A DNA stretch of 64,000 bases from Isoetes taiwanensis (Eukaryota > Streptophyta > Lycopodiopsida > Isoetales > Isoetaceae), in assembly GCA_021234155.1 (NCBI GenBank), contig JAJEKV010000124.1, forward strand, positions 1 to 64,000. The letters are read 5' to 3'. The position numbers and the translations under genes were made by a program. Under the pieces are notes generated by a model. The model worked only from the letters and a program-made list of their open reading frames with translations, did not search any database and was not told where the DNA came from. The stretch's first letter is position 1, and every line of letters starts with the position of its first letter. Shown here piece after piece: positions 2,946 through 4,299 of the stretch.

Positions 2946-3682
2946 TGCCGCGCTTTAAGCTAACCGTGGACTTGAAGAAGTTGAGCGTATTCCAGCTATT
3001 TGGCGCGCGTTAGTCGAGCATCTTGCCGACGAAGACCCTATGATAGATACCATTCTTGGTCTTTTAGGTCAAGCATTTCGGCCGAGGGCGAAGAATCCCT
3101 ACCCTATCTTCCACTTCAAGGAGCTTTCTTATAAAGTTGAATGAAGCCGTCGGGCTTACACTCGTGGAGCAACGGACCGTGCATGGGCTGTGGTTAAGTT
3201 TTATCCCTCGCCAGGACCAGATGACGACCCTGCCGAGCTTATTCGAAATGAAGCCCAGAGGATCATGCATCTTGCGAGAGTGGAAGACTTGCAGCAAATA
3301 GCCAGTGCTCCACCAGACATAAGGACGGACCGCTTCTATTACTTGGGAAAGGGCAGATACTCCACGCATACTAAGAATACTTTAATCTTCCTACCTTCTC
3401 TTGGAATGAAGACCTTAATGCTTCATTTTGAAAATGTTCCGCCAAGGTTTAGCCAATGCCACGGAATCCATCCAAGAGGACATGCGGGAGGGCCTGACGG
3501 GCCAATACCATATCGAGATTGCCCGGACGATACAAATGCGCACGGACAAAGAGGCCAGGGATGAAGAGCGAGAGCGGCTCCAAAAGGAAGGGGAGGACCC
3601 TCATAGCCAGCAGGCGGGGAATCAGCCGGGGACCAGCAAGATCACCGGCGGGGTTGATCAGCAAGCGGAACCCCGATGTTGA
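2946..3682 (+). pseudogene. ORF-A, N-terminal part (unknown, upstream of the H3 domain)
   Basis: Begins with an ATG at 2946 and continues, with several one-base frameshifts and a stop near 3142, through frames at 3190-3430 and 3428-3682. No domain is recognised in the first part. The last part (3428-3682) is strongly charged, rich in R, E, K and Q, and likely helical, then Gly/Pro-rich. The frame leads into the H3-like ORF at 3676, which overlaps it by a few bases, so the two may be one protein of about 440 residues. This is the slot between PBS and gag in which some large plant Ty3 elements carry extra ORFs. Confidence 0.5.
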
Positions 3683-4299
3683 CCGCCGAGGACCTAGGTG
3701 TTGCCGTAGCGTTAACTCGGGTAGACCAGGGACATGCGACAAAACGGAATCAATCGGTAGACCCACGTGGAAACTCCACTAAGAGGCAGCGGTGGGGCGG
3801 AGAGGGCCGAACATTGAAGAGAAAGGGTACCAAACCCGTGAAGGGTGGGGTGAACTATAAGACCCGACTCCAGCAGAATGCAACAATTGCCAAGAAGACA
3901 TCGGCTCAGAGACGGGAGCAGATCGTCCAGCGGACAAAGCATCCTTCAACCGGCGGCAAATCCATTCCGTCGCTTAAGGCGACCCTCAAGCCGCGGAAGC
4001 CCCATAGATTTCGACCCGGCACGGTAGCTCTTCGAGAGATACGTAAGTATCAGAAGACTACCGAGCCATTGATCCGCCGGCTTCCCTTCCAGCGGCTTGT
4101 ATGGGAGATCGCCCAGGAATTCAAAACCGACCTAAGGTTTCAAGCTTTTGCGGTCCTCGCCCTACAGGAGGCTGCCGAGGCTTATCTCATTGAACTTTTG
4201 AGCGACGCCAACCTTTGCGCCATACACGCAAAGAGGGTCACTATTATGCCCAAGGACCTTCACAGCACGAGAAGGATCAGGGGATTTTTAGATGATTAG
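3676..4299 (+). CDS. ORF-A C-terminal part: histone H3-like protein inside the retrotransposon
   Basis: A 207-residue open frame. Residues 1-85 are a basic, Lys/Arg/Gln-rich extension with no recognised domain. Around residues 86-107 there is a shortened H3-like tail (RTK, then STGGK, then KPHRFRPG). Residues 108-205 are a nearly complete histone H3 fold: the PGTVALREIRKYQK alpha-N helix, LPFQRLV (alpha 1), FKTDLRFQ (loop 1), a long alpha 2 with ALQEAAEAYL, NLCAIHAKRVTIMPKD, and RRIRG at the end. Loop 1 has the canonical H3 length, so it is not a CENH3. There is no intron. Departures from canonical H3 include W in alpha 1 (LVWEIAQ), AFAVLAL in alpha 2 and an FLDD end. Histone H3 forms tetramers with H4 in nucleosomes; whether this product enters chromatin is unknown. 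The gene lies inside a chromovirus whose integrase ends in a chromodomain, a module that can bind H3 tails. The H3 identity is seen directly; the function is inference. Confidence 0.9.
   Translation: MLTAEDLGVAVALTRVDQGHATKRNQSVDPRGNSTKRQRWGGEGRTLKRKGTKPVKGGVNYKTRLQQNATIAKKTSAQRREQIVQRTKHPSTGGKSIPSLKATLKPRKPHRFRPGTVALREIRKYQKTTEPLIRRLPFQRLVWEIAQEFKTDLRFQAFAVLALQEAAEAYLIELLSDANLCAIHAKRVTIMPKDLHSTRRIRGFLDD

What the first reader, a model, noticed from the sequence alone, without database searches (positions are those of the whole stretch)
3676..4299. A histone H3 fold encoded inside a Ty3 chromovirus
The C-terminal 100 residues of ORF-A are a nearly complete histone H3, with canonical loop-1 length and the NLCAIHAKRVTIMPKD end, preceded by a shortened H3-like tail and an 85-residue basic extension. 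It lies between the LTRs, on the same strand as gag-pol and without introns, so it looks like a captured gene now belonging to the element. The integrase of the same element ends in a chromodomain, a reader of histone tails. An element that makes its own H3-like protein could mark or reshape chromatin at its target, or package nucleic acid. I know of no described chromovirus with this arrangement, but cannot search.
Basis: partly seen in the sequence, partly recalled or inferred. Interest (0 to 1): 0.92.

Follow-up and report, generated by a model that had tools for sequence, protein, structure and literature searches.

The report
Retrotransposon carrying its own histone H3
A family of jumping genes in a quillwort-like plant genome carries its own version of histone H3, a protein that packages DNA, fused to a protein part unlike any known one, and evolution has kept that histone part almost unchanged.

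Summary
Window 3676-4299 is the 3' end of a longer gene (ORF-A, ATG at 2945) between the LTRs of a Ty3 element; the window copy is decayed. The genome (inferred Isoetes taiwanensis) holds many copies: whole-ORF-A searches scored 94 and 102 loci, most with N-domain and H3 together. Intact ORF-A is about 410-460 aa: a ~195-aa N-domain with no known relative, a linker, a basic extension in place of the normal H3 tail, then an H3 fold. In 39 open copies the N-domain falls to 29-36% identity between subfamilies S1, S2 and S3, while the H3 fold stays 82-88% identical with saturated synonymous sites. Within subfamilies, H3-fold dN/dS is 0.014-0.054. Eighteen listed nucleosome-contact positions are kept in 37-39 of 39. 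Element H3s form one clade apart from 10 host H3 genes. Three S1 copies lacking two further extra genes still keep ORF-A. This is a captured, selected gene of the element. Most likely it pairs with host H4 and makes nucleosomes with a non-standard tail; that step is inferred. The nearest known kind is the single histones of DNA viruses; the searches made found no retroelement example.

The parts
698..2221 (+). 5' LTR (aligned part)
   Evidence: 87.4% identical to 12215-13776 over 1601 columns; K2P 0.16 on a slightly larger alignment
2249..2260 (+). primer binding site word TGGTATCAGAGC (initiator tRNA-Met type; label recalled)
   Evidence: read; the same exact word lies upstream of ORF-A in 16 of 20 wide loci
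2945..4299 (+). ORF-A region: N-domain and linker (frameshifted in this copy) followed by the H3 part
   Evidence: tblastn of intact ORF-A L010 to 2945-4284; frames
3676..4299 (+). open 207-aa 3' part of ORF-A: linker end, basic extension, H3 fold
3823..3996 (+). basic extension in place of the normal H3 tail (approximate limits)
   Evidence: alignment; pI 10.8-12.0 in seven representative copies
3997..4284 (+). histone H3 fold (H3 numbering K37 to G132)
   Evidence: window copy 83% identical to host H3
4573..5956 (+). ORF-B remnant (unknown protein, about 460 aa when intact)
   Evidence: tblastn 75.7% to L010 ORF-B; no Pfam match, one PDB match at E 0.22 only
6132..6624 (+). ORF-C remnant (unknown protein, about 169 aa when intact)
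   Evidence: tblastn; no Pfam match, no PDB match below E 0.7
6936..8450 (+). gag and protease remnants
   Evidence: tblastn to L022 gag region, which matches Ty3_capsid 9.8e-17
8485..10782 (+). pol remnants: RT, RNase H, integrase
11425..11571 (+). integrase C-terminal chromodomain
   Evidence: Pfam Chromo 1.9e-8
12215..13776 (+). 3' LTR (aligned part)
56190..56312 (-). second, degraded element piece: C-terminal end of an H3 fold from another subfamily
54599..55949 (-). divergent ORF-B directly downstream of that H3 piece (43-48% identity in its two longest pieces to L010 ORF-B), frameshifted

Best explanation
SHOWN: ORF-A is an element-owned gene, first after the 5' LTR in the window and S1 copies, encoding [N-domain ~195 aa]-[variable linker]-[basic extension]-[H3 fold]. 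The H3 fold behaves as one capture from a green-plant H3, kept under strong purifying selection while the rest diverged. INFERRED: the protein enters the nucleus (basic extension), pairs with host H4 through its intact fold, and is deposited in nucleosomes by host H3 chaperones. Such nucleosomes lack the normal K4-K9-K27-K36 layout of the tail and instead display a basic extension and the element's own N-domain. The likeliest gain is self-marking: element or target chromatin that takes the usual H3 silencing marks poorly and that element proteins can recognise.
For: N-domain and H3 together in 94 S1 loci scored (85 reach residue 421 or more of 449, counted by eye) and 102 S2 loci scored (94 reach residue 402 or more of 409). 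H3-fold dN/dS 0.014-0.054 within subfamilies against 0.08-0.10 for the N-domain (bootstrap). Between S1, S2 and S3 pS is 0.80-0.94, yet H3 identity is 82-88% against 29-36% for the N-domain. 56 of 96 fold residues match the host in all 39 copies; 18 listed contact positions are kept in 37-39 of 39 (roles recalled). Shared derived T107A (39/39) and I124L (38/39). One clade against 10 host genes, SH-aLRT 96. Synonymous divergence from host saturated, so no recent recapture. H3 position 36 is R in 35 of 39. L012, L016 and L019 lack ORF-B and ORF-C but keep ORF-A and gag-pol. Precedent: CvBV-H4 enters host nucleosomes and singlet viral H3s are thought to (PMC9145170, passages).
Against: No transcript, protein or localisation data. 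The chaperone site (H3 87-90) is FAIL, FAVL or HAIL rather than host SAVL or HAVL, so deposition may differ. The 39 copies were chosen through H3 matches and open frames, which biases identity upward. LTRs and gag-pol were read only for the window and S1; S2 and S3 were not read through to gag.
Confidence: 0.5

Rival explanations
1. Integration tether: ORF-A is placed in target nucleosomes and its N-domain or basic extension recruits the element's own integrase or pre-integration complex, possibly through the chromodomain.
For: The same element has an integrase chromodomain whose first and last cage positions look non-aromatic to me, as described for type II, for which no partner is known (PMC6317226, one passage). 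RKS/RKT-like words, the context that chromodomains of other proteins read in H3, occur in 12 of 17 S2 extensions.
Against: Such a word is in only 2 of 19 S1 copies, and the chromodomain was seen only in the window and S1. No interaction data. It may be combined with the best explanation.
Confidence: 0.2
2. Decoy: the H3 fold binds H4 or histone chaperones without entering nucleosomes and so disturbs host chromatin assembly.
For: A fold joined to a large N-domain and linker is unlike normal H3. Nudivirus Orf1 has a similar layout and a poison role was suggested for it (PMC9145170, passages).
Against: DNA-contact arginines and dyad lysines (R40, R49, R63, R83, K115, K122; roles recalled) are kept in 37-39 of 39, which a decoy would not need.
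Confidence: 0.15
3. Packaging: ORF-A coats element RNA or cDNA in the particle.
For: Basic extension and basic fold.
Against: The element has its own gag with a capsid match and a weak zinc-knuckle match. H3 alone is not known to wrap DNA (recalled), and no histone match was found in ORF-B or ORF-C.
Confidence: 0.08
4. Chance insertion of a host H3 pseudogene, or co-amplified passenger DNA.
For: The window copy on its own is decayed.
Against: Many copies in several deeply diverged subfamilies, dN/dS far below 1.
Confidence: 0.01
5. A host gene family that took over element parts, with the H3 serving the plant.
For: Some open ORF-A copies lie beside no detected gag-pol in the stretch read (L027; L048 with downstream L059).
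Against: Copies are dispersed over many contigs; a PBS word lies upstream in 16 of 20 wide loci and gag follows in 18 of 20, in whole or part; many copies are decayed, as in a transposon.
Confidence: 0.04

Closest known systems
Single (singlet) viral H3 histones of DNA viruses, e.g. DSLPV1 and Sylvanvirus (PMC9145170, passages)
   Same: One histone only, 73-87% identical to a host H3, some with an extended N-terminus, altered chaperone site (TAIL in those two, FAIL/HAIL here)
   Different: Here it is in an LTR retrotransposon of a land plant, with many copies and several deeply diverged subfamilies, and the tail is largely rewritten
H3-like proteins of two late-phycodnavirus MAGs with N-terminal extensions of about 170 residues (PMC9145170, passages)
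   Same: Unknown long N-terminal part before an H3-like fold
   Different: DNA virus; the review groups them with histones that mostly lack high identity to eukaryotic ones
Bracovirus CvBV-H4 (PMC9145170, passages)
   Same: Captured host histone with added N-terminal part, about 87% identical in the fold
   Different: H4, DNA virus relic used by wasps, conserved tail lysines; reported to enter host nucleosomes, which is not shown here
Ty3/gypsy elements with captured extra ORFs, e.g. the AlkB/2-ODD ORF of 25-kb orchid elements (PMC9289625, abstract and passages)
   Same: Large plant Ty3/gypsy element with an additional host-derived ORF
   Different: Demethylase domain, angiosperm, titled a recent acquisition; here a core histone fused to an unknown domain, with saturated synonymous divergence
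Plant chromoviruses (PMC6317226, PMC3350952, passages)
   Same: Ty3 gag-pol with integrase chromodomain
   Different: Three extra ORFs before gag
Nudivirus Orf1 (PMC9145170, passages)
   Same: Long protein of unknown N-terminal part ending in histone folds
   Different: H4-H3 doublet at 30-40% identity, DNA virus

Membership tests
Histone H3 | Histone fold recognised as core histone H3 | tested here: met
   Pfam Histone in 12 of 12 aligned ORF-A; PDB best hits H3
Histone H3 | Normal N-terminal tail with K4, K9, K27 and K36 in order | tested here: not met
   A longer basic extension stands in its place in the 11 representatives shown. Words like H3 11-14 in 39 of 39 (loose pattern), RKS/RKT in 15 of 39, K36 kept in 3 of 39, so a remodelled tail rather than none
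Histone H3 | Residues for H4 pairing, H3-H3 bundle and DNA contact | tested here: met
   Kept in 37-39 of 39 copies at 18 listed positions (roles recalled)
Histone H3 | Incorporation into nucleosomes | not testable with these tools
   Needs biochemistry
CENH3 | Longer loop 1 and divergent fold (recalled) | tested here: not met
   Fold aligns position by position to host H3; the nine sequences printed, window included, are 83-89% identical
Chromovirus (Ty3/gypsy with integrase chromodomain) | LTRs, PBS, gag, RT/RNaseH, integrase, chromodomain in this order | tested here: met
   Window and S1 copies in part. Not tested for S2, S3 and S4
Chromovirus (Ty3/gypsy with integrase chromodomain) | RT phylogeny inside the chromovirus branch | not tested
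   No reference RT set was on hand
Singlet viral histone (host-captured) | Encoded by a mobile or viral genome, single histone, 73-89% identical to host | tested here: met
   83-89% to host; no histone match in ORF-B or ORF-C of L010. The carrier is a retroelement, not a DNA virus

The most novel reading that the evidence does not exclude
A retroelement lineage has run its own histone for a very long time: it builds private nucleosomes with a rewritten tail and an element-specific handle, which its integrase chromodomain or other element proteins read, so that the element writes and reads its own chromatin address. This would also give a candidate partner for type II chromodomains.
Probability: 0.2. 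Interest if true: 0.97.

Novelty: new variant of a known kind. Interest (0 to 1): 0.88.

Why it matters
Core histones encoded by selfish DNA are described for DNA viruses; here a retrotransposon family kept one through deep divergence. It makes two open questions testable: how plant chromoviruses avoid or use H3-based silencing, and what type II chromodomains bind (partner unidentified, PMC6317226). It also gives a natural H3 fusion with a remodelled tail whose effect on chromatin can be measured.

Tried and rejected
Chance pseudogene: rejected. CENH3: rejected. Recent recapture or gene conversion from host H3: not supported, median synonymous divergence from host H3 is beyond saturation. Relationship of the N-domain to gag, ORF-B or ORF-C: none by hhalign. 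N-domain in Pfam or PDB: no convincing match beyond the histone part (a few single-member Pfam matches at E 0.02-0.7). Viral contigs: 138 pattern matches, none a relative. Structure from the single window sequence: mean pLDDT 50.8, not used. ORF-C dN/dS could not be read (median dS infinite). Pol gave only 2 usable frames. L027 was dropped from the 39-copy set because a motif filter missed it. Loci that end before or at the start of the fold: C1107 and C1037:11866701 both stop at query residue 338, C1018:24509704 at 352, C987 at 355. They may be loss copies; their sequence could not be read.

Full report
WHAT IS THERE. The frame at 3676-4299 is real and ends in a histone H3 fold (Pfam E 1.4e-39; solved H3 chains E about 3e-47). 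It lies between two direct repeats of about 1.55 kb, 87.4% identical, after the PBS word TGGTATCAGAGC. On the same strand follow remnants of gag, protease, RT, RNase H and integrase, and a chromodomain. The LTR differences are odd (110 transitions, 120 transversions, with local scrambled stretches), so part of the damage in this copy may be assembly error; the assembly of the inferred host used Nanopore and Illumina reads (PMC8566536, passages).

HOST. The genome has 1,658,258,908 bases in 1110 contigs. The Isoetes taiwanensis paper reports 1658.30 Mb in 204 scaffolds and 909 contigs (PMC8566536, passages). The host name is inferred from this match only. That paper's main text holds the word 'histone' 0 times.

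THE WHOLE GENE. In the genome, 150 of 150 scored matches to the 207-aa protein were significant (first look 8450 candidates), and 111 of 150 had no stop inside (counted by eye). Many lie in frames of 440-485 aa. Twenty loci of 10 kb were read, picked from that list for a long open frame. All 20 hold ORF-A; 17 of 20 hold ORF-B and 14 of 20 ORF-C, some in part; L012, L016 and L019 lack both and start gag 250-270 bases after ORF-A. The usual order is PBS, ORF-A, ORF-B, ORF-C, gag, pol; the 10-kb stretches do not reach the 3' end of the long form. '20 of 20' is not an unbiased rate. ORF-B and ORF-C match nothing in Pfam and nothing convincing in PDB (best E 0.22 and 0.73).

INDEPENDENT CO-LINEARITY. 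A search with the N-domain alone (2833 candidates, 150 scored) gave 74 of 150 hits with a listed H3 hit 625-846 bases downstream on the same strand; the H3 list is itself cut at 150, so this is a lower bound. With whole S1 ORF-A (11006 candidates, 94 loci scored, 109 matches), 85 of 94 loci reach residue 421 or more of 449, 15 of them in two pieces; 5 end inside the fold (372-409) and 4 before it or at its start (338, 338, 352, 355). With whole S2 ORF-A (12410 candidates, 102 loci), 94 of 102 reach residue 402 or more of 409, and 68 of 102 have no stop. These counts were made by eye. Only the best candidates are scored, so complete copies are favoured.

SUBFAMILIES AND SELECTION. Thirty-nine open ORF-A frames were compared: 19 S1, 17 S2, 2 S3, 1 S4. 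Between S1, S2 and S3 the N-domain is 29-36% identical and the H3 fold 82-88%, with pS 0.80-0.94, i.e. saturated. S4 is closest to S2 (65% N-domain, 92.5% H3). Within subfamilies dN/dS of the fold (median dN over median dS) is 0.054 (S1), 0.014 (S2) and 0.030 (S3, one pair), against 0.100, 0.082 and 0.097 for the N-domain. Medians of per-pair ratios with a codon bootstrap on 10 sequences: S1 fold 0.047 (0.032-0.089), S2 fold 0.017 (0.000-0.027), S1 N-domain 0.112 (0.106-0.168), S2 N-domain 0.079 (0.059-0.106). The window copy's fold against 19 S1 gives 0.060. Yardsticks in S1 are gag 0.078 (6 frames) and ORF-B 0.134 (4 frames). Caution: frames were picked for being open and for H3 score, which lowers dN; the dS of about 0.6 in the same codons shows they are not merely recent copies.

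THE H3. Fifty-six of 96 fold residues equal the host in all 39 copies. Shared departures are T107A (39/39), E105 to S/G (39/39), S86 to T/A (39/39), I124L (38/39) and S87F (37/39; H in S3). K53 (38/39), L90 (39/39, not listed as varying) and A96 (37/39) are plant-type and point to a green-plant donor (the plant/animal contrast is recalled). The 87-90 chaperone site is FAIL, FAVL or HAIL in the nine element sequences printed, against host SAVL and HAVL. Eighteen listed contact positions are kept in 37-39 of 39. The nucleotide tree puts the element H3s on one side and 10 host H3 genes on the other (SH-aLRT 96), and S1, S2+S4 and S3 appear in both the H3 and the N-domain tree. Host H3: 15 loci at 97-99% to the typed plant H3.3, then a gap to at most 87%.

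THE TAIL. In place of the normal tail stand about 55 basic residues (pI 10.8-12.0 in seven copies). They are not free of tail-like words: a TGGK, TAGK or G-A/G-K word resembling H3 11-14 is in 39 of 39 by a loose pattern, RTKxPxTGGK in 5 of 19 S1, K[STAG]GxxY[KR] in 30 of 39, and an RKS/RKT word resembling the K9/K27 context in 15 of 39 (12 of 17 S2, 2 of 19 S1, 1 of 2 S3). Position 36 is R in 35, K in 3 and Q in 1. So the tail is rewritten and longer, and the usual K4-K9-K27-K36 layout is lost, but modification of single lysines is not excluded.

OTHER SUBFAMILIES IN CONTEXT. An S2 ORF-A (L048) is followed by an ORF-B 48.6% identical to that of S1 (L059); beyond it 1.35 kb show no match, so gag-pol of S2 was not seen. 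The window itself holds a second, degraded piece (56312-54599, minus strand) with the end of an H3 fold followed by a divergent ORF-B. So the ORF-A to ORF-B order is probably older than the S1/S2 split. S3 and S4 context was not read.

MECHANISM. Shown: element-owned gene (window, S1), strong selection on a nucleosome-competent H3 surface, a rewritten tail, an attached N-domain. Inferred: nuclear entry, pairing with host H4, deposition, and chromatin that takes the usual marks poorly. The self-marking / anti-silencing reading is my first choice and the integration tether my second. The chromodomain in L012, L016 and L019 reads ...EALLDRAYKQTRRTQMLQYLVKWKH...; by the wording of PMC6317226 (one passage) type II chromodomains lack the first and usually the last aromatic cage residue and have no known partner. 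Placing this one in type II is my reading of the sequence.

AGE. Partial LTR comparisons give 93-95% (L012), 85% (L016) and 94% (L019), against 87% in the window, so the family moved over a long time; no rate was applied.

LITERATURE. Searches (open-licence PMC text only) listed no paper whose title or shown abstract describes a histone encoded by a retrotransposon. The viral histone review PMC9145170 (passages) holds 'retrotransposon' 0 times. PMC9289625 (abstract and passages) reports extra domains in angiosperm elements, with AlkB as its main case. PMC6338049 (passages) holds 'histone' 0 times. Subscription papers and preprints were not searched, so novelty is not proven.

Noticed in passing
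window 17573-23656 and 38414-44801 (+): Direct duplication, 94-99% identical in its pieces, each copy holding the end of a histone deacetylase gene (Pfam Hist_deacetyl 2e-17).
   Followed up: partly
window 56288-57357 (+): A gag-pol fragment related to that of S1 abuts the second H3/ORF-B piece in the opposite orientation, so that locus is rearranged.
   Followed up: no
L010 4118-4636 (-) and L010 4800-6248 (-): ORF-C and ORF-B have no known relative and are open in several copies (9 and 4 usable frames); ORF-B dN/dS 0.134 over 4 frames.
   Followed up: partly
G000:C1107:203164-204207 and G000:C1037:11866701-11867693: Two ORF-A copies whose match stops at the same query residue 338, just before the H3 fold; a possible lineage that lost H3. 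Letters could not be fetched.
   Followed up: no
L039-L058, ORF-A extension before the H3 fold: A K[STAG]GxxY[KR] word recurs in 30 of 39 extensions, with ARKS-like context in part of S2: a possible histone-tail mimic.
   Followed up: partly
window 13800-15900 (-): Looks like a MULE/FAR1-type transposase gene beside the 3' LTR (read by eye; not tested).
   Followed up: no
L029-L038: Host canonical H3 genes are intronless as matched (full-length single-frame hits), 15 loci at 97-99% to plant H3.3, 10 of them read.
   Followed up: partly
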